Below are positions 4,191 to 58,489 of a DNA stretch of 64,000 nt, in pieces. Each line of letters starts with the position of its first letter. Position 1 is the first letter of the stretch. A program made the position numbers and the translations under genes. The DNA is taken from the NCBI GenBank assembly GCA_012845835.1, contig JABAKD010000026.1:13466111-13530110 (forward strand), in the 5' to 3' direction. The DNA is from Undaria pinnatifida (Eukaryota; Sar; Phaeophyceae; Laminariales; Alariaceae). Under the pieces are notes generated by a model. The model did no database searches. It was not told where the DNA came from and was given only the letters and a program-made list of their open reading frames with translations.

Positions 4191-4210
4191 AATATACTTC
4201 GAAGTATATT
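4191..4210. repeat. Perfect 20 bp palindrome next to R1
   Basis: AATATACTTCGAAGTATATT is fully self-complementary. It sits a few bases outside the R1 copy that starts at about 4217. Related palindromes (ATACTYCGRAGTAT core) lie close to other R1 ends at 10079, 37354 and 58469. Confidence 0.7.
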
Positions 4211-4216
4211 ATAAAA

Positions 4217-4825
4217 AATAAAATACACTGCAGCTGTAGGATCGAATGTTTGGTCGAAACTCATCTTTGCAAGCTGTGTGTGATGCTCTGATCGCGCGTA
4301 TTACGGGTTGTGTGTCCTCGTTAGGGATATATAGGTCGGCGATTCCCCTTGCAACTACAGTGTAGCTATCAGGGTCAACAGGGTGATGTTAGTCAGTCTG
4401 TGCGCGGAAACTACAAAACCTGTTTCTGAGGGGGACAAAATCTGACAGCTGTAAAAGGAATGCATTGGTTTATTATCAAGTGAATCCTGTAAGTCGATTA
4501 ACCGGTGAGGGGGGGGCGGAGGTTTGAAGGATCTGGGGGTCTGATTTTGATCAAACGGGGGGGCGGGGGGGGGGGGGGCGGGGGGGCGGGGGGGAGGGGA
4601 GCATCCTGTAAGTCAAATAAACGGTGAGGGGGAGGGGCGGAGTTTGCAAGGACCTGGCGGCCTGACTTTGATTAAAAAAGGGGGGGGGGGGGGCTAGGGT
4701 GCCGGGGGCGGGAGGGGCAGCTCAATTTGTGCCTAGAAACTATGAATCCTTCAAGAGAATAAATATGACTTTTTTGTAAAGAATGCGCGCGGGAGGGGGC
4801 GGTGGGGGCGGGGGGCGAATACTTA
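4217..4825 (+). repeat. R1 G-tract repeat copy
   Basis: R1 is the most frequent dispersed family here. Reading inward from its terminus it has AATACACTCCAGCTGTGAGA, then GTCGAAACTCATCTTTGCAA, then GATCGCGCGTATTACGGG, GTGTGTCCTCATTAAGGATA, CAGGGTCAACAGGGTGAT, GCGCGGAAACTATAAAAC and GGGGGACAAAATCTGACAG. Long G tracts follow. This copy carries G tracts near 4505, 4555-4600 and 4680 and stops where R2 copy C begins. No credible coding region is visible. Confidence 0.75.
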
Positions 4826-6886: not shown

Positions 6887-7290
6887 GCCCCCAATAATAC
6901 ACTGGTGCCAAAAGCGTCACATTTATCCCCTCGGAAGGATTTATAGCTTACACGCACAAATTGCCCCTCTCCCCCCCCCCCCCGCCCCCCTCCAAACCCG
7001 CTCGCTTTTGATAAAAACCAGCCCCCCCTTTCCCTTCACAGCTGTCAGATTTTGTCCCCCTCAGGTACGGGTTTTATTGTTTCCGCGCACAGACTGACTA
7101 AAATCATCCTGTTGACCCTGATAGCTACACTGTAGTTGTAAGGGGAGTCGCCGACCTATATCCTTAATGAGGACACACAACTCGTAATGCGCGCGATCGG
7201 AGTATCACACACAGCTTGCAAAGATGAGTTTCGACGAAATCTTCGATCTCACAGCTGGAGTGTATTTTAATTTTTATAATATATATATCC
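6730..7290 (-). repeat. R1 G-tract repeat copy (inverted)
   Basis: Reverse-oriented R1. It has long C tracts at about 6859-6893 and 6968-6990. Each is flanked by repeats of a module carrying GTCACATTTATCCCCTCG and a TTTCCAGGCACA-type segment, so two degenerate roughly 110 bp submodules lie in tandem. The copy ends in the conserved terminus (GATGAGTTTCGACGAAATC, CACAGCTGGAGTGTATTTT). Confidence 0.75.
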
Positions 7291-8810: not shown

Positions 8811-9536
8811 TATACACCTGTTATTCCAGGAGCAACATGGACCGATCGATCGGAACAGTCATCATCATATCGGGACAACCAATTATCATGTTGCGGGCGA
8901 GCCATTGCGCGTTTGGTCCGAGGTTCATCAGCTTGCGGTAGAGTCCATCGAGTCGAACGTCATTTCGGACACCGATTCCGGCAAAACCAACAGACAACAC
9001 CCCAAAAGTAGGGTTGAAAGGGGGTCCAAGAAACCACTAATGATGATGATGTACGATGTACGATACCCCGCTGTAATAAAAGGAGGGGGTTGAGCCATCC
9101 CACGGTAGGTGAGGGGTTGCATCAGAAAGTCCCCGAGTTTTTCACATGAGGAGCTCAATGCCTCACCAAGAAAAATGATTTGTAGAGCATTCGTTCGCAC
9201 CACCCGACCAAGCTTCTATGCCTTACTTAGTCCAAAACAAAATGTACTCGAGAAATTACTTCATTGACGGGAAGTTCCTCACATGAGCAGCTCAACCACC
9301 CGGGGACGTTTTGGCCCAAAAACTGCAACCCCTTCCGTGGGATGACTCGGTTCGTAGGCCGACTTGGATGAGGAGAAAAAAAAAGGTGGACAAAGATATA
9401 CCAGGCGAACCGTATGTATAAGTACAACCAGGAGGATACACTTCAGTACCAGAATGATACCTACGTTGATCTGAAAAATCCCCACTAATGATTGCCACCA
9501 ACTGAATCAGACGGATATAATACATATATACTGATA
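8811..9536. other. Unassigned; weakly resembles 11.76-12.2 kb
   Basis: No gene recognised. A segment near 8940-9000 (GAGTCGAACGTCATTTCGG) resembles 11876-11900 (GAGTCCAACGTCATTTTGG), which suggests a diverged dispersed repeat shared by the two places. Confidence 0.35.
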
Positions 9537-10700
9537 TAAAAATTTTAAATACAATCCAGCTGTGAGATCGAACATGTACTGTCGAAACTCATATATTTGC
9601 AAGCTGCGTGTGATACTCCGATCGCGCGTACTACGGGTTGTGTGTCCTCATTAAGGATATAGGTCGGCGACTCCCCTTGCAATAACTACAGTGTAGCCAT
9701 CAGGGTCAACAGGATGATTTTAGTCAGTCTGTTCGCGGAAACAATAGAACCCGGTTTTGAAGGGGACAAAATCTGACAGCTGTGGAAGGAAATGCATCAG
9801 TTTATCAAGGCTTAGTGAATCCTGTAAGTCGAATGACCGGTGAGGGGAGGGCGGAGTTTTTATGGACCTGAGCGGCCTCATTTAAATCAAAATGGGGGGC
9901 GGGGGGAGGGGGGAGTGCGCTCAATTTGTGCGTAGAAACTATGAATCGTTCAAGGGGATTAATCTGACGGGAATCCAAAAAATGCACGGCGGGGGGGCAG
10001 CTCAATCTATGCGTACAAACTATACATCATTTAAGGGGATAATTGTGACGGTTTTGGAAAGAATGAACCTTTATCATGTACTCCGGAGTATATACTGTAT
10101 GTCGTAAACCTGTCAGTAGAGGTCGGAGTGTTCGAGGGAGTGGGGGTGGCGTGGGTGGGGAGATGGGGGGTGGGGGAGGGGGGGGGGGCAAGGGCTTCAG
10201 GTCGCAAAGATGTAGGGGTTATATACGCGTGGTGCTAGGTCTAAGCGACGGTGCGGGTTGTGTCGACGGAGGGGGCGTTGAGGGCGGGGGGGGGCGCGCA
10301 TTGCAGCAGCGGGGCATGGATGGCTCTTAAACGATAATGAGACGATATCCAGGGCGTAAAAGTGTTTTTTACTTCAGGCGGATGTCGATAATAATAGGTG
10401 GGGCGTTTGAGCAAGAGAGGGCGAGAAAGAAAAGAGCGGGGGGGGGGGGGGTGAAAAGGGTTTTCAAGAGGTTTAGGTCACATATATTATCGTAATGCGC
10501 GCGATCGGAGTATCACACACAGCTTGCAAAGATGAGTTTCGACGAAATCCTCGATCTCACAGCTGGAGTGTATTTTAATTTTTATAATATTATATACATT
10601 TTTTATTTTATTATTAAAATACACTCCAGCTGTGAGATCAAGGGGTTGGTCGAAATATTTGCAACACTTGTGAGTGATACTTCGATTGCGCGTATAATAC
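9537..10700 (+). repeat. R1 cluster: full module, second module and terminal hairpin
   Basis: A + oriented R1 terminus at about 9553 runs through several G-tract submodules (9895-9910, 9988, 10150-10190). It continues into a second module (GATGTAGGGGTTATATACGC; GATATCCAGGGCGTAAAAGT) and a TTTAGGTCACATATATTATC boundary near 10475. From 10493 to 10690 two R1 termini face each other, AGCTGGAGTGTATTTTAAT against ATTAAAATACACTCCAGCT, and form a long inverted repeat around 10600. Confidence 0.65.
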
Positions 10701-13572: not shown

Positions 13573-15976
13573 TCACATCAACTCGCATAATCAAGTCTGT
13601 GGTCACAGGACAGGCTCCAGTCACTCTGGAGCTGAGGAATACCCCAGGGAAAAACACAAACAAACCAAAGGTGGTGCACGCATATATCACAGCTGACATA
13701 TTTCATGCCTCCTCCGGAAACTTGAAAAAAGTGAAATCGGGAGTCAGTCTACGATGTGCCATATCCATGCCGGTGCATACGTCTCATTACTCACGCCTGG
13801 AGAAACAAACTACTCCGATCGCCACCCAAGGAAGACTACCACGTATATATTACACGTAGTATCTACCACTACGCATACGCACGACGAGCGTAAGTCAATT
13901 GGAGAAAATAGACAAAGAAAAGAAAAAAAAGGAGATAAAGGAAAGGAAAGAAAAGATAAGAAAGCGAAACAAAACGAAAGAGGAAAGAAAAGACAAGAAA
14001 AAGACAAGAAAAGCAAGAAAAGACAATACAAGAAGAGGAAGCGAGGCAAAGAAAAAAGAAGAGATAGAAGAAAAAAAAAAAAAAAAAGAAAAATGTCATA
14101 CTCGCAGACGCTAGGAACTGGCTAAGGATGGCATTGGGCTCACAGAGGGTATCACGTCCATCATCAATGGCACCGGGGAGAGAACGCAACACGGCGACTA
14201 AGTCAGGGCGGTCTTATGCTATCTTGTGACGGCCATTAGAAGGCCCACAACTTTCAACACGATGATGGCCAAACCCAGACTTCAGTATCTTGGGCATGAC
14301 GCCCCCCCTTCCTCCCTTTATCCCTCCCCCCTCTCCCCCTCCCCCCCTCCCCCCATCCCCCCCCGGCCCCCTTCTCCCCCTCCCCCCGGCCGCTTAGATA
14401 TGCCAACGGTGGATGGCGCTGCCGCAGCCTTTGCGCGTCGCTCTGCAGCTTTGCGTCTCTCCGTTTCATGCCAATTCTGCATGAACTCGGCTCCCTCCTC
14501 TACTCTTCGAAATCATCTGCCAGCCTTCTGAGCAGCCTTTCGCCATTCTTCGAACTTCATTCCAAAGACCGACATGTCCTCCTTCAGATGATCCATCCAG
14601 TTTTTCTCTTGCCCCCTTGAGTAGCCCTTCACGCCCAGCAAGCTCCCCAAATATCACCCTCGGTGGGAGACGCTCCTCCCCCATACGTGCTACGACTCCC
14701 GCAAACAATATCCTCCGTTTGCGCACTATCGCCTCAACGCTCTCGGAATCTGTCTTGGTAAGGGTGTGGTCGTCGCGCTTTCGTTTCCACCATCCAAGGC
14801 ATCGGAGGAGCATGGAGCGGTGAACCCGTCGTAGCCTGTCATAGTCAGGCTTCTTCGGGCTCCACGTCATGCAACCTTACAGCAGTGTCTCGACCACCTC
14901 AGCTTTCAGCAACCGCACCTTCAGCCGTCAACGCACACCCGGGCGATCATAGATTTCCATCTTGTACGGCTGAAAGCACGCCCAGGCCCTCTGAAGACGC
15001 CACGTTATTTCAATGCTAAGGTCTCTGTCTGAGGTGATAGCCCCGCCCAAGTATACAAACTGGATTGTTTGTTTGTATACCTGGCCAGCTGCATTGATTG
15101 TGAAGGGCACCTTCCCCCCGCTATTGGTTTCCAGGCACATTTTCTCTGTTTTTGCCTCGGATCCTGTAAGAAGCCCGAACGACGAGCACGCAGTCACGAT
15201 AACCGTCATCATCCTCTTCAGCCCTTCTGATGATCGCGATACGATGCCCGCATCGTTCGCGTACAGCATACCCCACAATTTCTGCTCCTCCTTCCCCTCC
15301 TTCCCCCTCCGTCCGTCGACTTTGCCTGTGCGTGAAGTGCCCTTCTTCTCGCCTTCCTCCTTTCGCTGGAGCTGCACCATGTTGTCCGTGATGGCTGCAT
15401 CAGTGAGGAAGCGTTTCTCGGCTACACGCAGTACCGCCGTGGAAAATGTGTTGACCAGCAGTGGGGCAAGCACGCATCCTTGCCTGAGACCTTGCCCCAC
15501 GTCGAACTTATCCGAGCATTCTCCATCATCCAGCCGCACGCATGCTTGCATACCGTCGTGGAACTGGCAGATGACGGCGAGCATTCTCGGTGGCACGCCA
15601 AAACGAGCATCCCACAAAAGGCTTCAGTCGACGGAATTGTATGCTTTGGCGATGTCGATAAAGCACATGTAAAAGGGGGTGTCCTTCTTCCGCGCCAGTT
15701 CCTGCAGTCGTCGTACTACGAACATCGTGTCAACCGTCGAGCGTTGGGGTCTGAACCCACACTGTTCCTCCGGCAGAATGTTCTCGCGTTCGCAATAGTC
15801 ACTCAGGCGACCCGCGATGACTTTGAGGAGTACTTTGCCGGCATGAGCCACGAGGGAGATGCCACGATAATTGCCACACTCAATCCGAGCTTTCTTCTTG
15901 TGAAGCACCTTAATCGTTGCATCTTTCCATTGTTGCGGTACGCCACCCCCCCTCCACACAGCTTATGGAGTACCGC
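13573..15976 (-). mobile_element. Non-LTR retrotransposon (LINE), 5'-truncated copy 1
   Basis: Minus-strand LINE. It begins inside the linker or RT region at about 15976, has an RT remnant to about 14466, then a C/G-rich segment (about 14300-14395) and a purine-rich 3' UTR (about 13900-14095). It ends in the conserved tail reaching the GTT tract. The endonuclease and upstream ORF are missing. The 5' end abuts the tail of R2 copy D, so truncation or insertion occurred next to an older element. The second copy at 58.49-60.93 kb has the same order, including the G-rich segment and CT/AG-rich 3' UTR. Confidence 0.85.
14466..15959 (-). pseudogene. LINE reverse transcriptase remnant, catalytic D lost
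   Basis: Reverse transcriptase of a non-LTR element, which would copy element RNA into the target site. Visible in order on the minus strand: [19 protein letters not shown] (RT motif 1 region, about 15885), [15 protein letters not shown] (motif 2), [13 protein letters not shown] (motif A, near 15660-15624), [14 protein letters not shown] (motif B, about 15490), then LYANDAGIV at about 15265-15237. The canonical YADD box reads YAND here (codon 15257-15255), which should abolish catalysis. The C-terminal part includes RRVHRSMLLRCLGWWKRKRD and IVRKRRILFAGVVARMGEE. The reading is split over at least three frames. Clade is uncertain; RTE- or Jockey-like organisation is possible. It is clearly a pseudogene. 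Confidence 0.85.
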
Positions 15977-17369: not shown

Positions 17370-18480
17370 ACACATTACCCCGCCCCCCCCCCCCTTTGTT
17401 CCCCGCCCAGTTCGTTCGAACGCCCCACTTACAATCGAAATCGGCCCGAGTAGTAAACACTTCTAAGCAAGTGATATCACGTCATTATCTTTCTAGCCAT
17501 CCATGACGTAGCTTTCATTCATCCCCCCTCCCCCCCTCCAACGCCCCTTCCTTCCCCACACCCCGCACGATCGCCTAGACCCCACACCGCGCGTATAGCA
17601 AGCCCCTACATATATGATTAATACACGCGATCGGAGGATCACACACAATTTTGCCAAGATCAGTTTCGAATACATCCTTCATGTCATAGCTGGAGTGCAC
17701 TTAGTTATTATTATAAAAATTAAAATACACTTCATTATATGTGACCTAAACCTCTTGAAAACCCGTCCCCCCCCCCCTTGTTTTTTTCCTCGCTCTCTCT
17801 CGCTCTAACGCCCCACCTAATATCGAAATCCGCCAGAGTAATAAACTCTTCCACGCCCTGAATATCGCCTCATTATCTTTTTACAGCCGTCCATGTCGCT
17901 GCTGCAATTCTCACCCACCCCCGCCCCCAACGCCCCCTCCTTCCCCACCACCCGCACCATCGCCTAGACCTAGCGCCACGCGAATAGCAAACCCCTACAT
18001 CTATTCGACCTAACCCTCCCCGATACACATCCCCCCCCCCCTCCCCCCCAAGAAGGATTTAGAGTTTCCACAGACAATTAGCTGCCCCACCTGTCCCTCC
18101 CCCCCTCTCCCCCTCCCGCCCCCCTTTCGATCAAAATCAGGCCCCCATGTCCTTAAAAACTCCGCCCTCCCCTCGCCGGTTATTCCACTTACAGGATTCA
18201 CTTGATGAACAAACGCATTTCCTTCCACAGCGGTCAGATTTTGTCCCCCTCAGAAACGGGTCTTATAGTTTCCGCGCACAGACTGACTAAAATCACCCTG
18301 TTGACCTTGCTACAAGCTGCACGGTAGTTGCAAGGGGGGTCGCCGACCTATATCCTTAATGAGGACACACAACTAGTAATTCGCGCGATCGGAGTATCAC
18401 ACAACGTACAAATATGAGGTTCGACAAAATATTCGATCTCACAGCTGGAGTGTATTTTAATTTTAATACTATATAATATA
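17370..18480 (-). repeat. R1 copies (inverted), two modules plus terminus
   Basis: Minus-oriented. The module CGATATCACGTCATTATC-like (17468-17520) matches 34376-34420 almost exactly. A second module with CGCCTCATTATCTTTTT follows, then C tracts (18028-18050) and the full R1 terminus ending at CAGCTGGAGTGTATTTTAAT near 18460. Confidence 0.7.
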
Positions 18481-19259
18481 GACTATATGATCGTTCTTTT
18501 TTTTTCGGGGATTCGGTCAGGAGTTATCTTCGTCTCGGCTTCTTCAGTATGCGATTCGCGGTACTGGAATTCTCGGCAAATAGCTTCGTTCGAGCGCCGT
18601 CTTCGCGGGGCGGCTCCAACGCCCATCGCCCTGCCGTATCCGTTTCGCGCTTTGACGTGAACGCGGATAGACGCTGAGCGGGACAATCGAGAAGTGCGCT
18701 TTTTTTGTATTTTGGGCGGTATACGCCCGAGCTATTTTTGGATCTTGGCACATGCAGAGGTTGAACGAATAAATAAAGGACAACATTTCCAATTTGGCGC
18801 TATTTCCAAATTGGAGTCATTTCCAAATTGGCATATAAATCCCTTCCTGACGATGCCTTTTTCATGGCCGCCTCCAAACGCTTGCCCTATCGTACCTACT
18901 ACTGCTGTGTGTCGTTTCCTTTCATTTCAGTGGATCTAATGCTATATAACCAACGAAGGATGTGTCGTGAGTACGATTCTCACCCAGATCATACTTGGCA
19001 TTCACGAGCGTACGCGCTGGAGACGTTATGGATGGTTATGATAGTTGTTAGTGTTCTCCTGAGTACTACTAACTGTGCAGTACGTGGAGAGGGGATAGCT
19101 CCGGACAGTGCGCATACAAAGTCGGTGATACTCTGCAACGAACGGATAAAGAGCTATTTTAGATACACTTACTCAAGTCTCGAATCCCTTGTCCCAACTC
19201 TCTCACCGCTTCTAGTTTGTCCTCCGTGTCTACCTTCAGGCTGATTTCTCCCGTCTGCT
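18481..19259. other. No gene recognised
   Basis: Between the R1 terminus and the putative gypsy LTR. It contains an overlapping direct repetition of TTTCCAAATTGG-type motifs at about 18786-18832. The open frames up to 138 codons have no motif I recognise. Confidence 0.4.
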
Positions 19260-19572
19260 TGTTGCAACAGCTGCCTGCAAACACCAGTCTCGTCTCACGC
19301 AGTCCTTATCTAAGCGCTCGTACAATATAACAGATCTCCGGATGAAACCTCCAATAATGCCTCACGGTAACGTTCGCTGTATTCGAGCTCGGTTCGCAGT
19401 CACTCGCGCTCGTGTCAGATCAAGTTCAGGCTCCTTTTTCCCTCGTTTGGTTTTGTGTGTTTTTCGACCGAGGCCGTGAGCGGCACGCTTTCTAGACTAA
19501 TCGGCGTTATACAGACCTAGGCAGCATTCCGCCACGGGGTTTCATGTGACGTCATGTCAATCCGCCGCAACA
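19260..19572 (-). repeat. Putative gypsy 3' LTR (313 bp)
   Basis: On the minus strand the segment starts TGTTGC directly after a polypurine tract and ends GCAACA, giving a perfect 6 bp terminal inverted repeat with TG...CA ends. It holds a palindromic TGACGTCA site (19547-19554) and a TATA-like CTGTATAACG soon after. I find no second copy at 26-28 kb, so the 5' LTR is missing and the right boundary rests on the terminal motif only. Start is well supported by the PPT; the end is less certain. Confidence 0.55.
19547..19554. promoter_or_regulatory. TGACGTCA (CRE/ATF-type) palindrome in LTR
   Basis: A perfect bZIP-type palindrome 18-25 bp inside the LTR start, upstream of a TATA-like element in minus orientation. 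Stress-responsive bZIP sites are common in LTR promoters of other organisms; its function here is inferred. Confidence 0.45.
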
Positions 19573-19953: not shown

Positions 19954-20640
19954 TTACGGGGAACCGGATTGCGAATGTCCGGTCCTCCTACCTTTCAGGA
20001 TTTCACGTTCGTTGAGCTCCTCCCGGTCTCCGTCTGCGTACCGAACCCGCCAGTACGGTAACTTGTGGTCGAAGACATTTGAAAGATGATGCTTCTTGTT
20101 TCCTTCAGCGTCCGCGGGTTTCCTCCAGATCACGGTCCCCACGGGGTGTTGTTTCAACGCATGTTCGCGGTCGATTCCTTCTCTTTCCTTCTGCATTAGC
20201 GTCGAAGTCGGCCTTACCTGGCATTTCGCTCCGTAATACGTTTCCCACAGCGCATGGGAAACGTCCAGCTGTAAAGGGGTGAAACTGCCTTGTGCCTCCT
20301 CTTCGGACAGCCACTGCGACTGTGTGCCATCCACGAATCGTCCCTTGTATCGCCACTTCCAAGCGTTGCCTTGATCCATCACAGCCTTTCTGTCTATTAG
20401 GGTATACATAGGCGACGCTACAATCGACGGCTCCGCTAGTCCGAAGTCAACTCCCCATGCCAGGTGAGCAAATTCGTCTTCGAAGTCGTGACGAAGGTCG
20501 TCCGGACGTATGTGGAACGTCTTGATATTCGCCGCTGACACTCGGCGTCGGCGAATCCTTCGCCCATTCATCGTGACGATGTAGCTTAATCCTGGTAAGA
20601 CAACTGCAGTCACCTCCCAAGATCCGGTCTAGTGCTCGTG
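19954..20640 (-). pseudogene. Gypsy C-terminal tail: integrase C-terminus, unclassified W-rich block, Tudor-like domain
   Basis: The start continues the integrase C-terminal barrel: SYIVTMNGRRIRRRRVSAAN and IKTFHIRPDDL (about 20590-20500). Next is an unclassified Trp-rich segment with WKWRYKGRFVDGTQSQWLSE (about 20362-20300), which may be chromodomain-like but I would not insist. Near the C-terminus, VGTVIWRKPAD followed by LPYWRVRYADGDREELNERE (about 20120-20000) matches the PTM/DIR17-type Tudor pattern, where a G-x-V start and a YxVxYxDGDxEEL strand form a histone-reader fold. An in-frame stop separates it from the integrase block at about 20630. I infer a targeting or chromatin-reader role, analogous to chromodomains of chromoviruses. 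Confidence 0.7.
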
Positions 20641-22166
20641 GGCTAGTTTATGATGTATCCCCTCCCTTGCCATCACAGACTCCGCCTTTTTCCCCAGCAC
20701 CTTGTCTCTGACAACAACACGGGTTTCCACCAAGACCCGACCGAGTTCAGCATTCCGGCTCTCACCACGTTTCTGTCTGTCTTCATGTTTTTTCGATAGA
20801 GCCATCCGTACATCCCGTACCTCCTTGTACGCTTGACGTTTGTCGGCCATGTAACTGTGCATCCCGCCTCTGAATTCACCACCATCTATCTCGGGGTGCG
20901 TAGCATCAAGTTGCGTGCGTGCACCACGACCGAAGAAAAGACGGAAGGGAGTTGGCTTCCCCGGTAAGCGCAGGTCCGGCGTGGTACGATGGACCCACAG
21001 TGCCGGCTGCATATACTCGTCCCATCTGCGAGGCCAAGTCTTGCACCGTTCTCCTAGTGCTTCGTGTAGCCACCCCCGCAGTCTCTCCATCGTCCCCTGT
21101 GCGCGTGGATGGTCGACAGACCCATATGCGATGGTCACGTTCAACCATTTGCATAAGCGTTGCATCACCTCTGCCGTAAACTTGGATCCCGGAACACTGC
21201 GAACATACATCGGTAGCCCAAACGTATGCATCGTTTGGAGCGGTTCCTCGCTTCTCCGAGTGCTTCTTTCGTGGGGAGCGGGAAGGCGAAAAAGAACTTG
21301 CTGGCTGTGTCGAATGCCACCAGTAGAACTTTGTTGCCTGCGTCTGAATTCACGCCCATGCCCTGGATGTCGACTTCGAGTACTTCCCCGGGTCGTAGAA
21401 ACCTCGACGGTAGCATGGCAACCCGTTGACTCGCTGACCGCTTGCGACGTCTGCATCCACACGAGAGGACGTAGTCTCTAACGTCCTTGATGAGGGTGAG
21501 CCAGCAGAACCAATTACTAATCAAGGCCGTAAATCTCGCCGTCCCCGGATGCCCATAGGTGCTGTGCGCAAGCGCCATAATCCCTGGAACGATAGATCGG
21601 GGAACTGCAAATCGTGGGATCTTTCCCCAAGGTGCTACCCACAAGAGGCCGTTATCATCCAACACATATTCGCCACCTCCTGATCCTCGGTTTCCCGCTT
21701 CCTGGAGTTCTTTCCGAATCTTGCGCAGTACCATATCTTCGTACTGCCTCTGCATCAGCTGTGGTAAATTCTGGAGAATAGCTGTCACCCTCTCCAGCAT
21801 CAATGGCTGCGACCGCTGGGACCCCCTGGTCTCTTTCCCTGATCCGCTTGAACGGTTGCTGGTGTCCTTCGGTGGTTCCTCCAACGGATCACGTTGCCGT
21901 TTCGGTTTCGAGAGGAGCTCTCTCTGTCCCCTGCGTTTGCGTGGGCGGTCAACCTCCACTGGTGGCTCAGTAGTAGTGATTGCCTGCGCCGGTGCATTCT
22001 CCATCTCCTCCTCCTCAGGTGACGGCGGTTCAGCTGCCCAGACAACTTCCGGTTCCTCGGAAGTGGCCTTTGCCTGCGATCTCGTGACCGCTCTTGTCAC
22101 CTCAAAGGCTTGCTGCGAGGTAACCCTCAAACACCATGCAGGCCAATCCTTCCAGTTCCACGACAT
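20629..22166 (-). pseudogene. Gypsy integrase, frameshifted, second catalytic Asp lost
   Basis: Integrase inserts element cDNA into the genome. The first frame (22166-21165) has an acidic linker, then the HHCC zinc-binding module: H in LAHSTYGHPGTARFTALI and C-G-C in YVLSCGCRRRKR. The catalytic core starts at GEVLEVDIQGMGVNSDAGNK (first Asp) and FDTASKFFFAFPL. After a frameshift near 21230 a second frame (21462-20629) carries YVRSVPGSKFTAEVMQ, where the usual D of DxGxxF is absent, then VDHPRAQGTMERLRGWLHEA with the catalytic Glu. Loss of one DDE residue plus the frameshift argues that this copy is dead. Confidence 0.85.
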
Positions 22167-23087
22167 CTAGTACCGGTTTTCCCAGTAAGCCTTGAACAGC
22201 TAGTAACACTGCTCGTAGCATCGGAGAAGACGTGACATCTGCGATGATGTTTGCCGCTACGGTTTGCTGACCGTCTGCAGGATCACATGGCGTTCCTGCC
22301 TCGTTGTTGTCTTGGCGTAGTCGTTGAAGTGCAACTCTTTAGTTTCTTCCAGACGTGTCGCATCCGCTGGGTGTGCGATATACCCTTCGGTCGGCTTTGC
22401 TCCCATGATGTGAGCGCGGTTCAAAGAGATGATGGGTTCGCTGAACGAATATATCGCTCGCTCTCCGTTACCTCTCTTCAGGAAGTATGCGCCCCTTCGT
22501 CCCAGAAATTCCCCTAATTCCTGAACTGGTTGCTTTATCTTCTCCAACCTCCGCTTCCATACCCGGCTGACTTCCCTTTTGTTGCAAGGCCTCCCTTGAT
22601 TCCTACCACAAATGTCCGTTTCCTCCTCCACGGAATCCATACTCGGCTCGCTAGTATCTCCGCTTTGTCCACGATGTATGACTCTCGTTCCAAAGCGGGG
22701 AGAATCTCGTCGTTCCATTCCGTCGTTCGCAGAAGGTTGCCAAAACATTCGAGTATGAAAACGCGTGCGTCTGAAGCGATGGCAGCTTGGGTTAGGCTAC
22801 TCGCTCCGGATATTTCCGCCTTCTCCCGTATCCCTTCAAACCTCCTGCAGGCGTCACCGACCACCACGTCTGGTTTCACCTCTCTTGACATGGTTAGGCA
22901 TTCCTGCGACCCTGTTGTCACCCTAAGTAGCTTCGCAACGTTGTCGAATCTGTTTGCTCTGATGCATTCCAGTACTATTCAGTCCTGGTCTACTGCTCCT
23001 CTGACCGTCAGCAATCCCTCTGATGCAAGGATGCAGCCTCCCCTCCCACAGTCGAGCATGACCACCCTAGAAGCTCCGGTGCGATGA
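22160..23087 (-). pseudogene. Cytosine-5 DNA methyltransferase-like domain inside gypsy pol
   Basis: This block lies between the RNase H/tether and the integrase, where gypsy elements normally have nothing. On the minus strand I read, in the order of C5-MTase motifs: VVMLDCGRGGCILASEGL (motif I, SAM-binding, about 23065-23010); GAVDQD (motif II); IVLECIRANRFDNV; DVVVGDACRRFEGI (motif IV, Cys codon 22849-22847, with the usual PCQ eroded to ACR); RVFILECFGNLL (motif VI, Glu kept, ENV eroded); WIPWRRKRTFVVGIKGG (motif VIII, RxR kept). A target-recognition-like part follows with SFSEPIISLNRAH, GYIAHPADATRLEE and ELHFNDYAK. It ends with a VAANIIADV-like motif X near 22240. An in-frame TGA (22979-22981) and at least two frameshifts make it a pseudogene. 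Family assignment rests on the co-linear motifs; none was checked by search. Confidence 0.75.
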
Positions 23088-24015
23088 CAAGCTTGGCCTG
23101 TTGAGTATCTGCCTCTGATGGCTCTGCGGGTGTGAGCGCCACGGCTGCAAGTACTGTAACACGTTGAGTACTAGATCCGTCCACATCTTTCAATCCTAGG
23201 GTTTCAAGGTGTACGCCGTCGAGCACTGGCCCCTGAGGTCCTTTGTAAACGTTTGGCAACGACTCGTCTCCTGGAAAAGAGTCGTCGAAATCTTCGATCA
23301 CGATGCTCTTGTTCGGTACCCGCGACATGGCGCCTGGGAGATGATGTTGTGTCCCCGGCCTCCACTTCAAGGTTATGTCGTGCTCCATCAACCTCAGAGC
23401 CCAGCGGTGGTATTTCGGTGTGGGAGATTGGCTTTTGAAGCGACAAGTCAACACTGAACAGTCCGTGATGAGGTCGCCCCCAAAGATAGGGTTGGAATTT
23501 TCTCACCACCCACATGACTGCCATGCATTCACGGTCTGTTGCTGACCTTGTGGAGCCTCCTCTCCACCACTTTTTGCTGCCGTACGCGATCACCTTTTCC
23601 ACTCCTGCGATGCATTGTGTTAGCACCGCTCCTGCTTCTATCTCACTGGCATCGGTGGACAGCGAGAACGGTTCTGTCAACACCGGCAGGGCTAGAATTG
23701 GAGGTGACGTCAAAGCTTCGATAAGCTCATTAAAATCCTTGTTTTGCTCTTCTACCCACGGGACTTCTCTTTCTTCGCTCTCTTGGTTCTGAACCTTGGA
23801 TCTCTCAGCAAGTCGGAAATGGGCGCCACCACTGTGCTGTACTGGGGTACGAATTGCCGTAAGTACCCTGTCATGCCGAGCAACCCTCGCACCTCCTTCA
23901 CCGTGTTCGGCCTTGACAGCTGCGTGATAGCATAAATGTTGCTCGGGGCTGGCCTGGTACCAAGTCTATCCACGATCATGCCGACGACCTCCATGACCGA
24001 CTGACAGAAATGCAA
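23008..24015 (-). pseudogene. Gypsy RT connection, RNase H and tether
   Basis: The connection region has TVKEVRGLLGMTGYLRQFVP (about 23905-23850), typical of gypsy RT thumb/connection. RNase H follows, with STDASEIEAGAVLTQ (catalytic Asp), YGSKKWWRGGSTRSATDREC (catalytic Glu) and, in a shifted frame, FGGDLITDCSVLTCRF in place of the usual TDH motif. The end reads HDITLKWRPGTQHHLPGAMS, equivalent to the H-x-x-x-D-x-LSR tether with the Asp changed to Gly. A frameshift near 23500 separates the two RNase H frames. Confidence 0.85.
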
Positions 24016-24033: not shown

Positions 24034-24781
24034 TCAACGTCCTTGCCGTAGACACTCTAACGTTTCTCGCAGCAGTCCCCATTGATCTTCAAGGGTTTTC
24101 GACGGGATGGCGATGTCGTCCAACCAGCTCTTGATTTCCCCATCCTTGACGCTTACCAGTCGCCCTCTAACGTAGTTGGCAAACGCCGTAGGCACTGTTT
24201 TAAACCCGAAGCCGCAGCGAACGTATTCGTACAGCTTCCCGTCAGCGTCTCGAAATGCCGTCAGGTGTCGATTGTCCTCATGGATCTCGAGCTGTAAGAA
24301 TCCTGAAGCTAAATCGATGCTGGAGACATACTTCGACCCTTCCATCTCGTCCATAATATGCTGCAAGTCTCCGAGTCCACCACTCTGAGATTTGAGAAGC
24401 GCATTGATACCTCGAAAATCCTGCACAACCCGCACTGTCTGTCCCATCTTTCTTGCGAAGCGTCGAACAATTGGCGGCCCACTCGGAAGTTGATTCCCGA
24501 ATGGATCCATTTTTCTTCAGGAGCTTCACCACCTCAGTCTGAATCATCTCGCGCTGTTCCAGGCTGTAGTGTGGAATGGGCGCCACGTATGGCTTGACGT
24601 TGGGATCTTTGAGCTCCAGTCGCATGGGCACTCCTTTGCACGCTGGTACGCTCTCGGGGTTGACCGCGAACACGTCGATGTACTCGTTGAGAACGCCCAT
24701 CAATGTGTCCTTTTCGCTCGGACTGAGCTGTTCGAAGTTGGCCTCTCCCAGGTCCATCGTGGGGGCTTCGCTCGGAACCAC
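24034..24781 (-). pseudogene. Gypsy reverse transcriptase remnant
   Basis: The N-terminal RT portion reads VNPESVPACKGVPMRLELKD and QTEVVKLLKKNGSIRESTSE (24781-24500). After a frameshift near 24460 come VVQDFRGINALLKSQSGG, SSIDLASGFLQLEIHEDNRH (motif A Asp), FGFKTVPTAFANYVRG (motif B/C region) and IKSWLDDIAIPSKT, where the YxDD box reads WLDD with both Asp kept. A single frameshift divides RT and a short out-of-frame gap separates it from the RNase H block. Confidence 0.9.
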
Positions 24782-25021: not shown

Positions 25022-25819
25022 TTACTGTGCCCCCCTTGGCACTCCTAGATCCACTCCTACTTTAAGATCATAGCGTTTAGTTGATTCTACCACTACGAGC
25101 TGCTGTACTTGAGGTTGAGGGCCTTTGACAAAAGCGTCTACCTGGAGGCTGGTATCACCATGACCCTCAACGTCTTTCGCAATGCGTAGTTTCCAGTGCA
25201 AAGTGCCTTCGTCCTCCCAAACAGAGTTTCCTAACTTCATAATCCCCGCCGGGATCTTCGATTCCTCCAATTCTTCCGGTTCTTGCTCGTCCGTTGACGG
25301 TTTCACCGCGCAATAGTGGTCCCATTCGGCACACATCGCTCCTGCCGCGGCCTCTCCGACCTCCTTCGGGGCGAATGGTACCCACAATGAGGATGGTGTC
25401 GGCCGGAAACCCTCCTCACCATCGAAACTGATGATACGTCGATTGTCCGTCATGAACGCGGCTCCAAGCACCATCGCATACGGAAGTCCTTTCACCCCCC
25501 TGAACTTCACACAGAAGATTTGATCGACCGGTGCAAAGATTAGTGGCAGCAAGCACGAGCCTACCAACTCCATCGGGGGTGCGGCGCTGTTCTTTGGGTT
25601 TGCTGCGCTGAGTAGGCCCTTTCCCGTTGGATTTATCAGCGGCTTTCCCCAATCATCCCGTTCTTCGATGGATTCGATGCACTGCCGTGACACGTTGTTT
25701 CCTCTGCCCGCCCCAGTATCCACCAACACGGCAACCGGAAGTCGCCGGCTCGAGCTCGTTGCATGCCACAATGTTGCATGAACCCAAACCTGTGACGTCT
25801 TAGTTTGCAGTGCTCCCAT
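25022..25819 (-). pseudogene. Gypsy aspartic protease domain
   Basis: A 265-codon open frame. LPVAVLVDTGAGRGNNVS contains the retropepsin active-site D-T-G (near 25720), and PYAMVLGAAFMTDNRRIISF matches the later hydrophobic-hydrophobic-G strand of retropepsins (near 25460). The spacing of about 85 residues between the motifs is normal for the family. It lies directly upstream of RT in element order. The frame itself is open and may be the least decayed part of the element. Confidence 0.75.
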
Positions 25820-26420
25820 TTCCGATCGGTGAGAGGAACTCTCTGAACCCTGGCTGCTGTTGACCAGTGAACCCGGACTGCTTTTGGCCAGCGAACCCTA
25901 GCTGTTGTTGACCAGTGAACCCTGGCTGCTGTTGGCCAGTGAAATCTGACTGCTGTTGGCCAGCAAACCCTGGCTGTTGTTGGCCAGCAAACCTTGACTG
26001 TTGTTGCTGCGGCGGCCTTGGCACCACCGGACGTCCCCATCGCGATCAAGGGTGCGGTTGTGCTCCTCTTGCGGTTGTCTGTGGACCCCATCGTCCTCCA
26101 ATTTCAAACGGTGACGGTAGGGAGGGAGCGGACATCTAATTGTCGTTCCTACAGAATATGTCGGTCCTACTTCCCCTTGTCCTGCACCATCATGTGAACC
26201 CCATCCAACCTGGCCGCCCTGTGGTGGGCCTTCAACCTGGCCGCTCTGTGACGGGCCTCCCTATGGTGGGCCTCCCCTCTGGAAAGGTGCACCAAAAGCA
26301 CCCCAAAAAGGTTCCCCTCTTCCTCCCACGTTTTTTCCTCCAATCACTCCTCCCCCCCTCCCCGGGACGCCGCCCGTTTCCCTTTGACGAAACCTCTCGC
26401 TTTCCTGTCGTGTAGAGTAA
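25800..26420 (-). pseudogene. Gag-like Gln/Gly-rich repeat region
   Basis: On the minus strand (26027-25800) about seven tandem units of the type GQQQPGFTGQQQ run from about 26010 to 25850, based on 30 bp DNA repeats. Upstream frames near 26280-26170 are Gly/Pro/Gln-rich (GGPSQSGQVEGPPQGGQVGW). No zinc knuckle or capsid fold is visible. Position just before the protease supports a gag C-terminal assignment, and the element's 5' part seems missing or too diverged to see. Confidence 0.5.
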
Positions 26421-27649
26421 GATGAACTCGACAAATTTGTGCAGTACACGACGGACTCGACGACGCAGTGTTGTATCCGACGAATGGAGCTGTGCAGTAG
26501 GAGCTGTGCAATATGCAACGGACTCGATGAGGTTGCGTGGTACACGATGTACTCAACGAAGCTGCGTCGTATAAGGTGAAGATGGTATCCAACGATGTCG
26601 TCTAGAGAGACGAGTGGAGTCCAGGGGATCGATGGAGTCTAGTAACACCAAGTAGTCCTCACCAAACGGGTAGTGGCTTGGGACAAGGTGGGTGGGAAAA
26701 AGGGGTGGTGAAAGATACCGAGTACATGCATATTTACCTTTCTGGTTTGTTGAAAGTTGTCTCTTTATCATAATATACATGCAACCCTTCGAAAGCTCTA
26801 GTCTTCAATAACAGAGTAACATATGGAATCCCTTAGAGGTATATAAGGCACAACAATGATTAATATTAATGTATTCTTTACAAACCTCAAAATTCCAACG
26901 TACTTATCAAGCTTCCCCTTTATTATTACATTCTTTACAATCCTTGAGATTCCAACGTACTTGTCGAGCTTCCTCCCTTCCTATTCCAATAAGATAATGT
27001 CCCTAAACCATGTTTCTAATTCCGGTAAGTTCTTAGCATGACAAAGAGCAGCTATAGAAAGGCTTACATTCCCCATACAGAATAAAAAACTAGAACCAGT
27101 TTGCAGTATCACTACTCATGAAACACCTGTGAGAGCGACCTTGCAGTGCCTGTACAACCTGCGAAGACACAAAATCCCCATCACAAAGGCCAAAAACAAA
27201 TTGCCTGCAAAAAAAAACCTTTTCTTGTGGTCGTCTCACAGTATGCAACAAGTGTAGATCAACTAACAGACGCGAACTCATTTTCAACCTGTATGATGGA
27301 CGCAAGCACGTTTCCACAGTGATTTATCACGTACGAACTTACTCGAAATCAGTAATGATGATCCTCCTTTCCCGATGTCCTATTTGTCTCGTTTCTTGAA
27401 TCTACTTCCTACATTATATACAACTTAGTCAGCCCTTGCTATATGTTTCCAAAATTACCCAGCCCGTAGATTGCGATTTCGCGCAGTATAAAGACCAATC
27501 TGTGTACTATTCTGTACAAGGTACAACAAACATGTATCCCCAACAATAACGTATACATATAATACCCTAATCTATACTCACGACCGTGCACTGTTTTGAC
27601 CATATATACAGCAGTAGTAGGTATCGTCTATGTATGAGCAGATTATAGT
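26421..27649. other. Unassigned; degenerate CGACG-type tandem repeats, then AT-rich
   Basis: From about 26430 to 26620 there is a degenerate roughly 30-45 bp repetition of strings such as ACGGACTCGACGACGCAG, ACGGACTCGATGAGGTTGC and ACTCAACGAAGCTGCGTCG. The rest is AT-rich with a loose duplication of CCAACGTACTTATCAAGCTTC (26898) and CCAACGTACTTGTCGAGCTTC (26952). No gene recognised. Confidence 0.45.
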
Positions 27650-28350
27650 AAACGCCCCACCTACTATCGAAATCTGCCAGAGTAATAAACACTTCCACGC
27701 CCTGGATATCGCCTCGTTATCGTTTCAGAGCCGCCCATGCCGCTGCTGCAATTCCCACCCACCCCCGTCCCCAACGCCCCCTCCTTGACCGAACACCCGC
27801 ACCATCGCCTAGACCTAGCACCCCGCGTATAGCCAACCCCTACATCTATGCGACCTAAAGCCCTCCCCCCCCGCCCCCGCCCCCCCACGCGCCACATTCC
27901 CCCTCCCCCACAAGAAATATTTATAGTTTCCACGCCCAAATAGACCTGCCCCACCCATGCCCTTCCCCCCTTTCCCCCCCTCCCGCCCCACTTTTGATCA
28001 AAATCAGGCCCCCACATCCCTAAAAACTCCGCCCTCCTCTCACCGGATATTCGACTTACAGGATTGACTTGATAAACTGATGCATTTCCTTCCACAGCTG
28101 TCAGATTGTGTCCCCCTCAGAAACAGGTTTTATAGTTTCCACGCACAGACTGCCTAACATCACCCTGTTGACCCTGGTAGCTACACTGTAGTTGCAAGGG
28201 GAGTCGCCGACCTATATCCTTAATGAGGACACACAACCCGTAACACGCGCGATCGGAGTATCACACACAGCTTGCAAAGAAAGATGAGCTTTGACAAAAT
28301 ATTCGATCTCACAGATGGAGTGTATTAAAATTTCTGTAATATATCAAGTG
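27650..28350 (-). repeat. R1 copy (inverted)
   Basis: Starts with the outer module (CGCCCCACCTACTATCGAAA; GGATATCGCCTCGTTATCG), passes C tracts at 27864-27890 and 27966-27985, and ends with the terminus at about 28330. It abuts the 5.1 kb long-TIR element by about 50 bp. Confidence 0.75.
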
Positions 28351-34129: not shown

Positions 34130-35690
34130 CCCCCCCTCCGATCCCTCTTGTTCAAACGCCCCACCAAAAATGAAAATCTACCAGAGTAGTAAACACTACC
34201 AGCCGGCTGGTATCATCTCATTATCCTTCTAGACATCCATGCCATAGCTCCAACTCATCTCTCCGCCATTACCCCCCCCCCTCCCCCCGCGCTTTTGTTC
34301 CCGTCCAGTTCTTTCAAACGCCTCACTTACAATCGAAATCGGCCAGAGCAATAAACACATCTAAGCGATTGATATCACGTCATTATCTTTCTAGCCATCC
34401 ATGACGTAGCTTTCATTCATCCCGCCTCTCCCCTTACAACGCCCCCTCCTTCTCCACATCCCGCACGATCACATAGACCCAGCATCGCCCGTATAGCAAG
34501 TCCCTACACATATGATTAATCCTTGATCTCATAGCTGACTGATTCTACGATAGCCCCCCCCCAAAACCAGCGGTTTTCTTTAACGAACGTTTCATGGCTG
34601 CTCGACACGAGGAAGGATGCTATGAAAAGAGTATCTGCATATATTATCTTGTTTGCGGAGGACTATCGAACGATGACGTCCGGGTGGTAAGGGGGACCGT
34701 ATTTCAGGAGATACGGCCGGGAGTTGGTTTCAAAACCGGCGATTTCGTTAAAGAAAAGTTGGGGGGGCTACCGTAGAACCACACAGCTGGAGTGTATTAC
34801 AACAATGTTTGTGACCTAAACCTCTTCAAAACCCTTTCCGACCCCCCCCCCCCCCCCCCTCGCCCCCCCCCCCCCCTCGCCTCCCCCCCCTCCCCCCCCC
34901 CCCCCTCCCCCCCCCCCCACCCCCCCCCCCCTCCCCCCCCCCATTTTTTTTCCTCGCTTTTTCTTGCTCAAACTCCCCACCTAATATTTGATATCAAAAT
35001 CCGCCAGAGTAATAAACACTTCCATGCCCTAGACATCGCCTCATGATCTTTGTAGAGCCGTCCATGCCGCTCCGGCAATTCCCACCCCCCCCCGCCCCCA
35101 ACGCCCTTCCTTCCCCACCACCCGCACCATCGCCCAGACCTAGCACCACGCGTATAGCAACCCCTACATCTATCTATGCTACCTAAGGCCTCTCCCTCCC
35201 CCCCACCCCCTTTCCACCACATTCCCCCCCCCCCTTCCCCCACAAGGAGGATATATGGTTCCCACGCACAAATTTTCCTGCCGCACCTGTCCTTCCCCCC
35301 CTCCCCCCCTCCCGCCCCCTCTTTGATTAAAATCAGCGCCCCACGTCCTTAAAAACTCCGCCCTCCCCTAGCCGGTTATTCGACTTACAGGATTCACTTG
35401 ATAAACGGATGCATTTCCTTCCACGGCTGTCCAATTTTGTCCCCCTCAGAAACGGGTTTTATGGTTTCCGCGCACAGACTGCCTAACATCACCCTGTTGA
35501 CCCTGATAGCCACACTGTAGTTGCGAGGGGTGTCGCCGACCTATATCCTTAATGAGGACACGCAACCCGTAATACGCGCGATCAGAGTATCGCACAGCTT
35601 GCAAAGATGAGTTTCGACAAAATATTCGATCTCACAGCTGGAGTGTATTTTAATTATTATTTAGTAATAATTAAAATACAATCTTCGATC
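34130..35690 (-). repeat. R1 left arm of a 3 kb palindrome
   Basis: Minus-oriented outer modules (CATCTCATTATCCTTCTAG; CACGTCATTATCTTTCTAG), a MITE interruption, C tracts at 34843-34941 and 35084 and the full R1 terminus ending near 35655. It faces the + copy that starts near 35810. Confidence 0.75.
34538..34785. mobile_element. ~240 bp MITE inserted in R1
   Basis: The left end TTCTACGATAGCCCCCCC (34543) and the right end, whose complement is TTCTACGGTAGCCCCCCC (ending 34778), are inverted. A second inner pair is TTCTTTAACGAA (34574) and its complement TTCGTTAAAGAA (34745). It splits the R1 terminus: GATCTCATAGCTGA lies before it and CACAGCTGGAGTG after it, which gives an imperfect 8-9 bp duplication (ATAGCTGA/ACAGCTGG). 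That size suits hAT- or MULE-type non-autonomous elements. The small open frame inside is not a gene. Confidence 0.6.
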
Positions 35691-35925
35691 TCACAGCCGG
35701 AGTGTATTTTAGTTATTATTTATAAATAATTAAAATGGAGTGTATTTTAATTATTATTTATAAATAATTAAAATACACTGTATAAATAATTATTACTAAA
35801 TAATAATTAAAATACACTCCAGCTGTGAGATCGAAGATTTTGTCGAAACTCATCAGTGTATTTTAATTATTACTAATTAAATGATAATAATTAAAATACA
35901 CTCCAGCTGTGAGATCGAGAATTTT
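35640..35925. repeat. Centre of the R1 palindrome: nested AT-rich hairpins
   Basis: Several nested repeats of AGTGTATTTTAATTATTATT and the complement AATAATTAAAATACACT surround the centre. Each is a short palindrome (AATTATTATTTATAAATAAT), joining two oppositely oriented R1 termini. Such structures form cruciforms and are prone to assembly error. Confidence 0.7.
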
Positions 35926-37150
35926 GTCGAAACTCATTTTTGCAAGCTGTGTGTGATACTCCGATCGCGCGTGTTACGGGTTGTGTGTCCTCATTAAGGA
36001 TATAGGTCGGCGACTCCCCTTGCAACTACAGTGTAGCTATAAGGGTCAACAGGGTGATGTTTGGCAGTCTGTGCGCGGAAATTTTTTAAATCCCGTTTCT
36101 GAGGGGGACAAAATCTGACAGCTGTGGAAGGAAATGCATCAGTTTATCAAATGAATATTGTAAGTCGAATATCCGGTGAGGGGAGGGCGGAGTTTTGAAG
36201 GACGTGGGGGCCTGATTTTGATCAAAAGGTGGGCGGGAGGGGGGGAGGCGTGGGAGGGGACGGGTGGGGCAGGTCAATTTGTGCGTGGAAACTATAAACA
36301 TATCTTGTGGGGGAGAGGGGGGAATGTGGCGGGGGGGGCCGGATGCGGGGGGGGAGGGCTTTAGGTCGCATAGATGTAGGGGTTAGCTATACGCGTGGTG
36401 CTAGGTCTAGGCGATGGTGCGGGTAGTGGGGAAGGAGGGGGCGTTGGGGGCGGGGGTGGGTGGGAAATGCAGCAGCAGCATGGACGGCTCTCAAACTTTA
36501 ACGAGGCGATATCCAGGGCGCGGAAGTGTTTATTTCCCTGGCGGATTTCGATAGTAGGTGGGGCGTTTAAGCAGGAGGAAGCGAGGGAAGGCGGGGGAGG
36601 GGGGCGTTCAAGAGGTTTAGGTCACATATAATATTAAAATCAAGGATAAGGTCGACACTGATGCTCGCAACATTGTGTGATCCTCCGATCGCGCGTATTA
36701 ATCATATATATGTAGGAGCCTGCTGTACGCGCGGTGCTGGGTCTAGGCGATCGTGCGGGGTGTGGGAAAGGAGGGGGCGTTGGAGGGGGACAGGGGGCAT
36801 GAATGAAAGCTACGTCATGGATGGCTAGAAAGGTAATGACGTGATATCAATGGCTTATTAGTGTTTATTACTCTGGCCGATTTCGATTGTAAGTGGGGCG
36901 TTTGAACGAACTGGGCGGGGAACACCAGGGGGGGGGGGGGGAGTTGGAGCTACGGCATGGATGGCTAGATGGATGATGAGATGATATCAGCTGGCTGGTA
37001 GTGTTCACTACTCTGGCAGATTTTGATTTCAGGTGGTGCGTTTGAACAAGAGGGATCGGGGGGGGGGGGAGGGCGGGGAGCGAGCATTTCAATGTGCGCG
37101 CGGAAACTATAAACCCTTAAAGGGGAAGAATCTGACGGTTGCAGCAAGAA
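35810..37150 (+). repeat. R1 right arm, fullest copy in the window
   Basis: Runs from the terminus (CACTCCAGCTGTGAGATCGA at 35815; again at 35899) through G tracts. At least three downstream modules follow, each with a GGTCTAGGCGAT-type segment, a GCGATATCCAGGGCGCGG or GATATC segment and GGTGGGGCGTTT, ending near 37140. It shows that R1 is at least 1.3 kb and modular. Confidence 0.7.
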
Positions 37151-58039: not shown

Positions 58040-58118
58040 ATAGTTCTCAATAGCAGATCCTGGGGACTGACTACCTAAAGACGGCATTGTGCTCGTAAAG
58101 GGTGTCAAGGTGTACATT
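58040..58118 (-). mobile_element. LINE 3' UTR fragment
   Basis: ACCTAAAGACGGCATTGTGC and CGTAAAGGGTGTCAAG resemble the minus-strand LINE segment near 14120-14155 (GCTAAGGATGGCATTGGGCT; CAGAGGGTATCACG). The similarity stops at the R1 copy. Confidence 0.45.
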
Positions 58119-58460: not shown

Positions 58461-58489
58461 CTCTTATTATACTCCGGAGTATTATTGTA

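What the first reader, a model, noticed from the sequence alone, without database searches (positions are those of the whole stretch)
22160..23087. Gypsy retrotransposon with an embedded cytosine-5 DNA methyltransferase-like domain
Between RNase H and integrase there is a co-linear series of C5-MTase motifs: LDCGRGGCILASEGL (I), GAVDQD (II), VVVGDACRRF (IV, Cys kept), FILECFGNLL (VI), WRRKRTFVVGIK (VIII), an EPIISLNRAH / HPADATRLEE C-terminal part and a VAANIIADV motif X. From memory, capture of C5-MTases by eukaryotic retrotransposons has been reported in some algae and dinoflagellates; the position here, between RNase H and IN, is striking. An element that methylates DNA could self-mark its copies or affect host silencing. 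This copy is decayed.
Basis: partly seen in the sequence, partly recalled or inferred. Interest (0 to 1): 0.88.

Follow-up and report, generated by a model that had tools for sequence, protein, structure and literature searches.

The report
Altered DNA methyltransferase inside kelp retrotransposon
A jumping gene of the edible kelp Undaria carries, between two of its own enzymes, a piece derived from DNA-methylating enzymes whose active-site signature was found rewritten in the copies examined, which is odd because brown algae are reported to lack the usual DNA methylation enzymes.

Summary
Window 22111-23065 (minus strand) is a decayed C5-cytosine-methyltransferase-derived domain in a Ty3/gypsy Pol, between RNase H and integrase. 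Pfam alone misses it (13.3 bits, cut-off 22). Profile comparison of the family with 56 prokaryotic and phage sequences taken as C5-MTases gives 96.8% probability with motifs I, II, IV, VI, VIII in register; 100 column shuffles reach at most 1.7%. The genome is Undaria pinnatifida: one contig length equals the published N50. It holds 128 listed matches; 44 are near full length, 17 of these without a stop in the domain. One of six copies checked has identical LTRs.

The family itself is rewritten: GGPPCQ is commonly GDACRR, ENV is ECL, QRRxR is WRRKR. A 1431-residue open Pol frame from an unnamed source (domain 42% identical) has no cysteine at the motif IV position; motif IV is the least conserved segment between them. 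pN/pS of the domain matches RNase H plus linker in the same copies. Best reading: a captured methyltransferase kept for its fold or nucleic-acid handling, probably not for 5mC marking. Precedent: KnitGypsy-Dnmt3 (Klebsormidium), with canonical residues.

The parts
22111..23065 (-). C5-MTase-derived domain (decayed copy): one in-frame TGA at 22979-22981, frame changes between 22565 and 22562 and in 22263-22281
   Evidence: tblastn of P0001; translations; hhalign
23012..23056 (-). motif I (SAM loop) LDCGRGGCILASEGL
22982..22999 (-). motif II GAVDQD
22838..22873 (-). motif IV PDVVVGDACRRF (family form; canonical GGPPCQ absent)
22730..22759 (-). motif VI FILECFGNLL (Glu kept, Asn-Val changed)
22595..22642 (-). 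motif VIII VWIPWRRKRTFVVGIK (two Arg kept, Gln to Trp)
22111..22562 (-). C-terminal half (target-recognition position, possible motifs IX-X); its middle is the best conserved stretch between P0001 and P0091
   Evidence: (global mode)
23471..23758 (-). RNase H (PF17919/PF17917)
24043..24432 (-). reverse transcriptase (RVT_1)
25025..25792 (-). protease region with DTGA, homologous to residues 12-294 of P0091
21441..21605 (-). integrase zinc-binding H2C2 (PF17921)
21264..21395 (-). integrase core, weak in this copy (rve, E 0.043), clear in sister copy L194 (4.4e-9)
19999..20073 (-). C-terminal PTM/DIR17-like Tudor match, below cut-off (E 1.8e-4, 21.7 of 27.2 bits)
19134..19572 (-). 3' LTR, 92.5% identical to an LTR of a sister copy; no 5' LTR found in the window
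25845..27465 (-). 5' remainder incl. decayed gag and a 24-bp repeat array; similarity to sister copy L196 ends at 27465

Best explanation
A Ty3/gypsy lineage captured a C5-cytosine methyltransferase, perhaps of prokaryote- or virus-like type, into Pol behind RNase H, before the split between the Undaria family and the lineage of P0091. Shown: homology, position, family-wide change of the catalytic motifs, constraint comparable with RNase H plus linker, nearly or fully identical LTRs in some copies. Inferred: the domain no longer works as an ordinary 5mC writer. It is kept as a folded module that binds nucleic acid, and perhaps S-adenosylmethionine or its product, on the new cDNA or the integration complex: next to integrase it could hold the cDNA end, space RNase H and integrase in the particle, or help choose the target together with the C-terminal Tudor-like domain. 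The window holds a broken copy.
Against: In the Undaria family a Cys stays at the motif IV position (14 of 16 open copies), Glu of motif VI in 16 of 16, and both Arg of motif VIII in 14 of 16, so some activity cannot be excluded. pN/pS near 0.55 is only moderate, includes decay after insertion, and the segment values rest on few synonymous changes (VII-VIII pS 0.03). The good model used 41 canonical MTases in its 53-row alignment and is partly circular; without them it was unusable (pLDDT 41.6). A kelp, Saccharina, is reported with about 1.4% methylated cytosines, so 5mC may not be wholly absent in kelps. Nucleic-acid binding was not measured. A search for sister elements without the domain was not done.
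Confidence: 0.6

Rival explanations
1. An active but unusual C5-methyltransferase: the DAC cysteine and the LEC glutamate still do the chemistry, and the element methylates its own cDNA or RNA.
For: Cys kept in 14 of 16 open copies, Glu in 16 of 16, Arg pair in 14 of 16, G-rich motif I mostly kept. SymbioDIRS-Dnmt3 domains are active on CG (PMC5890265).
Against: In the 12 family rows of A6, PP before Cys is never present, N after Glu never, V after it once (the fragment P0062), and Q of motif VIII never; P0091 has no Cys there; weakest constraint lies over motifs IV-VIII; host clade reported without DNA methyltransferases other than DNMT2 homologues.
Confidence: 0.2
2. A passenger: a neutral relic of a captured enzyme, carried because Pol must stay in one frame.
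For: Moderate pN/pS of 0.56 and relaxed catalytic segments.
Against: Constraint equals that on RNase H plus linker in the same copies; 42% identity with P0091 over the whole domain, near the protease region (40%) and below RT (47-49%); an in-frame relic could have been deleted.
Confidence: 0.15
3. Not a methyltransferase: chance resemblance or another Rossmann-like fold.
For: No curated cut-off is reached; PDB sequence searches with the window piece and with A3 found no MTase; P0091 has no PF00145, PHROG or PDB C5-MTase match; the model without MTase rows was poor.
Against: Profile comparison with shuffles and other Pol segments as controls, co-linear motifs, PHROG 363 and dcm as best named hits for P0001.
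Confidence: 0.04

Closest known systems
KnitGypsy-Dnmt3 (Klebsormidium nitens; de Mendoza et al. 2018, PMC5890265)
   Same: C5-MTase domain inside the Pol ORF of an LTR gypsy element, without introns, in several copies
   Different: Dnmt3 class with conserved key residues and Ka/Ks below 0.2; the domain here compares better with prokaryote-type C5-MTases, has altered motifs IV, VI and VIII, and pN/pS near 0.55. The exact place of the domain in that Pol is in a figure that I could not see.
SymbioDIRS-Dnmt3 and SymbioLINE-Dnmt (dinoflagellates, PMC5890265)
   Same: retrotransposons carrying a C5-MTase
   Different: other element classes; SymbioDIRS domains methylate CG de novo in yeast
Gypsy-10_Ec32, Tudor-bearing gypsy of Ectocarpus (PMC12477816, passages)
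   Same: brown-algal gypsy with a C-terminal Tudor-like domain
   Different: 'methyltransferase' occurs twice in that main text, neither time for a gypsy element; I did not compare its sequence
Catalytically altered DNMT paralogues (DNMT3L, recalled; DRM3, PMC2965745, search listing only)
   Same: C5-MTase relative kept after loss of the canonical active site
   Different: host genes that help an active DNMT; no such partner is reported for brown algae

Membership tests
C5-cytosine DNA methyltransferase (PF00145) | score above the Pfam gathering cut-off (22 bits) | tested here: not met
   window piece 13.3 bits, read-through 14.3, best relative P0001 21.8
C5-cytosine DNA methyltransferase (PF00145) | co-linear motifs I, II, IV, VI, VIII; profile homology | tested here: met
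C5-cytosine DNA methyltransferase (PF00145) | motif IV PC(Q) with nucleophilic Cys | tested here: not met
   0 of 28 proteins with a readable motif IV (89 scanned) and 0 of 16 open copies have PC; Cys itself in 14 of 16
C5-cytosine DNA methyltransferase (PF00145) | motif VI ENV | tested here: not met
   EC followed by L in 15 of 16 open copies and by F in one; Glu in 16 of 16
C5-cytosine DNA methyltransferase (PF00145) | motif VIII RxR arginines | tested here: met
   both in 14 of 16 open copies; Gln changed to Trp
C5-cytosine DNA methyltransferase (PF00145) | C5-MTase fold | tested here: inconclusive
C5-cytosine DNA methyltransferase (PF00145) | methyl transfer activity | not testable with these tools
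   needs purified protein
Ty3/gypsy LTR retrotransposon | LTRs and Pol order PR-RT-RH-IN | tested here: met
   LTR pairs (alignments of 441-444 columns) in six of six sister copies examined; domains
KnitGypsy-Dnmt3 | domain of Dnmt3 class | tested here: inconclusive
   family against human DNMT3A alone scores 11.7, lowest of 58 single sequences; DNMT1 22.2, rank 48; Klebsormidium sequences not available
KnitGypsy-Dnmt3 | conserved key catalytic residues | tested here: not met
Tudor-bearing gypsy (Gypsy-10_Ec32 lineage) | C-terminal Tudor domain | tested here: inconclusive
   PF21743 E 1.8e-4 (window) and 0.0012 (L194), both below cut-off; not seen in the L197 frame
Tudor-bearing gypsy (Gypsy-10_Ec32 lineage) | RT phylogeny | not tested
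   no Ectocarpus sequence available

The most novel reading that the evidence does not exclude
In a clade reported to have lost cytosine DNA methylation, a retrotransposon lineage keeps a C5-methyltransferase fold as a working, non-methylating part of Pol: a pseudoenzyme that handles cDNA or the target beside integrase, a role that I found described for no retroelement in the papers seen.
Probability: 0.45. Interest if true: 0.85.

Novelty: new variant of a known kind. Interest (0 to 1): 0.7.

Why it matters
It adds what looks like an independent capture of a C5-MTase by a retrotransposon and shows that such a domain can persist, under constraint like that on RNase H plus linker, with its catalytic signature rewritten and in a host clade described as lacking DNMT1, DNMT3 and DNMT5. 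That separates 'elements carry DNMTs' from 'elements methylate DNA' and makes the question of what these domains do directly testable. It also shows that threshold searches with PF00145 can miss such domains: the best family member scanned falls 0.2 bits below the cut-off.

Tried and rejected
Repeats at 17.8-18.5 kb and 27.65-28.34 kb, 9.8 kb apart, looked like LTRs but occur at many other places of the window; rejected. The real LTR was found from sister copies. The first structure job on close relatives only was unusable. PDB sequence searches with the window piece and with A3 gave no MTase. A viral-contig scan with A3 found no relative. For P0091, Pfam shows no PF00145 match and no integrase, PHROGs nothing, and the PDB search RT/RNase H entries plus four weak rows, one of them (2pxx, E 0.09) within the domain, but no C5-MTase. 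An early profile of phage MTases gave 95.6% and 94.3%, but with motif IV out of register and nothing in global mode, so I rest on the broader profile; two of its 56 sequences (L122, L125) come from frames outside the tblastn match and may not be MTases. A charophyte host was considered early and dropped. PF00145 over the whole genome finds two other places only at E 0.001; DNMT2, expected from the literature, is either one of these or was missed, since exons are searched singly, so absence of host DNMTs rests on the papers and not on my search. The SRA-domain search (PF02182) did not complete, and the planned search for RNase H copies without the domain was not made. The literature searches in which I saw no report of this domain in brown-algal gypsy elements were made, in an open-licence library only and with capped lists.

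Full report
What is in the window. On the minus strand a decayed Ty3/gypsy element runs from about 27465 to 19134. Its pieces are a 5' remainder with decayed gag, a protease region with DTGA, RT (24043-24432), RNase H (23471-23758), the domain in question (22111-23065), integrase H2C2 (21441-21605), a weak integrase core, a weak C-terminal Tudor match and one 439-bp 3' LTR (19134-19572). No 5' LTR was found. Pol is broken: a frame change between 23071 and 23065, a TGA at 22979-22981, a frame change between 22565 and 22562, and another in 22263-22281, besides breaks in the RT and integrase parts.

Is the domain a methyltransferase? Curated thresholds say no: PF00145 gives 13.3 bits for the open window piece, 14.3 for a read-through and 21.8 of 22 for the best relative scanned, P0001 (of nine relatives scanned four reach E 0.05 or better and four, P0002, P0004, P0015 and P0043, show no match, as does P0019, whose frame ends in mid-domain). 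PHROG 363 'DNA methyltransferase' gives 4e-4 and TIGR00675 dcm 0.0023 for P0001, far below its cut-off. Profile comparison says yes. I aligned 14 family sequences and compared them by hhalign with 56 sequences taken as C5-MTases, one from a phage record and the others from bacterial and archaeal genome loci: 96.8% probability, E 2.2e-10, score 78.0, 163 columns, with motifs I, II, IV, VI and VIII falling on their counterparts. Controls: 100 column shuffles reach at most 1.7% (score 22.6), the reversed alignment 0.4%, and the protease, RT, RNase H and tail segments of P0091 0.4-1.4%; the P0091 domain alone reaches 88.3%, P0001 96.4%, P0002 84.3%, but P0004 only 16.1% and the short P0062 3.3%. 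The open window piece alone, nothing mended, reaches 86.7%. A narrower phage MTase profile gave 94.3% locally but with motif IV out of register, and nothing in global mode.

Relatives. A protein search found 43 proteins and a profile search 88, among them the window's own piece P0053. Most carry the source tag 'ena' and are 70-98% identical to the query; I infer that they come largely from this genome. Several join RNase H to the domain (P0008, P0019, P0043) or the domain to integrase (P0015) in one open frame. A search for longer proteins found one: P0091, 1431 residues, from an unnamed assembly, with RT, RNase H and then the domain at 42% identity; no integrase match lies in that frame.

Genome copies. 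The whole-genome search places the window at C33:13466111-13530110 of a 511,146,479-base assembly and lists 128 matches, a lower bound in which some copies are split. By my count of that list 44 matches cover nearly the whole domain (from residue 9 or before to 315 or beyond), and 17 of the 44 have no stop in it; open frames reach 1694 residues. Contig C34 is 16,510,065 bases long, exactly the scaffold N50 published for Undaria pinnatifida, whose size (511 Mb) and GC content (50.1%; window 50.7%) also fit (PMC7058681, passages). I take the host as Undaria. A divergent copy at C34:490883-491854 (41-42% identical, two stops) is a second lineage in the same genome. In six of the 17 open-domain copies, chosen for this, the LTR pairs are about 440 bp long and 100, 99.5, 97.7, 96.8, 95.9 and 88.0% identical. 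Open frames of one sister copy hold RT, RNase H, a sub-threshold PF00145 match (0.0035), H2C2, rve and a weak Tudor match; those of another hold RT, H2C2 and rve without a Tudor match.

The active site. In register with 41 canonical MTases, the family mostly keeps the glycines of motif I, an acidic residue in motif II, a Cys at the motif IV position, the Glu of motif VI, and the Pro and two Arg of motif VIII. It changes F of motif I to D (not in P0091), GPPCQ to DACR (one residue shorter), ENV to ECL, and Q of motif VIII to W. None of the 28 family proteins in which motif IV could be read has PC (89 were scanned, most being fragments), nor has any of 16 open genomic copies: 13 DAC, 1 DTC, 1 DAR, 1 DAW (16 of the 17 stop-free copies were used, one of three neighbouring copies on C22 left out). 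P0062 has CDAGRR, P0091 ICNIAKG, and the divergent Undaria copy HAC.

Constraint. Pooled Nei-Gojobori pN/pS over 16 open copies is 0.557 (codon bootstrap 0.442-0.763). In the 12 copies where RNase H plus linker could be read too (four of them with stops there, which were skipped), it is 0.545 for the domain and 0.537 for RNase H plus linker. By segment: I-III 0.50, IV-VI 0.84, VII-VIII 1.89, 165-220 0.37, IX-X 0.40; the pairs are not independent and synonymous counts are small, so only the trend is used. Between P0001 and P0091 the motif IV segment (54-100) is 20% identical, against 49% for 1-53 and 51% for 201-280. In the 41 MTase rows GPPC and Q are invariant. Both results point to a kept fold with a released active site, though in the Undaria family Cys and Glu persist.

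Structure. With close relatives alone AlphaFold2 gave nothing usable (pLDDT 41.6). With 12 family rows and 41 MTases the core is confident apart from the motif IV loop, and the target-recognition region is not; the 50 rows shown by Foldseek and by VIA-align are C5-MTase-family entries. As the alignment contained MTases, this shows compatibility and is not independent proof.

Origin and precedent. Against single sequences the family scores highest with prokaryotic enzymes (best 54.3, median 29.6), DNMT1 22.2 (rank 48 of 58), DNMT3A 11.7 (last), DNMT2 18.9. This suggests, without proving, a prokaryote- or virus-like source and not Dnmt3. The precedent is de Mendoza et al. 2018 (PMC5890265; abstract, sections on Symbiodinium elements, charophyte elements, yeast assay and discussion read): KnitGypsy-Dnmt3 carries the DNMT in Pol with conserved residues and Ka/Ks below 0.2, and its yeast assay was inconclusive. 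For brown algae, PMC13076208 (passages) reports no DNA methyltransferases except DNMT2 homologues, and PMC6916402 (passages) only DNMT2 in Saccharina, with about 1.4% of cytosines methylated, which sits uneasily with a clade free of 5mC; PMC12344493 (passages) mentions early-branching brown algae with DNMT1, another small conflict. The Ectocarpus TE paper (PMC12477816, passages) describes gypsy elements with chromo, Tudor and NADAR domains; 'methyltransferase' occurs twice in its main text, neither time for a gypsy element.

Mechanism. Most likely the domain is a pseudoenzyme-like part of Pol that binds cDNA, the RNA/DNA hybrid or target DNA beside integrase. The steps that are shown are homology, position, altered motifs, constraint and LTR identity; binding and its use are inferred. 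Rivals are an active atypical enzyme (0.2) and a neutral relic (0.15).

Noticed in passing
G000:C33:9584045-9584356 and 9595022-9595297 (L192, L193): The only two PF00145 matches at E 0.001 or better that the whole-genome search listed lie 11 kb apart, as short pieces (one with a stop) with motifs such as LLENM and GNSVVPA; they may be relics of an inserted virus or a host DNMT2-like gene.
   Followed up: partly
window 17373-18475, 27649-28344, 34267-36939, 4205-4752, 7029-7285, 9535-10596, 58117-58471: A dispersed repeat in pieces of roughly 0.1-1.1 kb, mostly 75-90% identical, in both orientations; two copies flank the gypsy element and mimic LTRs.
   Followed up: partly
window 19999-20073 and L194 C-terminus: Weak PTM/DIR17-like Tudor match at the end of Pol, recalling the Tudor-bearing Ectocarpus gypsy family.
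   Followed up: partly
window 14931-15623 (-): Reverse transcriptase fragment (RVT_1, 3.1e-6, just below cut-off), by eye of non-LTR type; the frame at 58385-59113 looks by eye like the antisense of a relative.
   Followed up: no
window 50037-50519 and 50702-51169 (-): Two near-identical neighbouring open frames with a GDGACLLRCIS motif that recalls OTU proteases (recalled); Pfam gave no clear family for the one scanned.
   Followed up: partly
window 44300-48400: Long C-rich low-complexity region, open in several frames on both strands; probably not coding.
   Followed up: no
P0015: Its end (LLYTSPSPRD) looks like sequencing-adapter read-through (recalled), yet the cluster holds 133 member sequences; perhaps transcript assemblies.
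   Followed up: no
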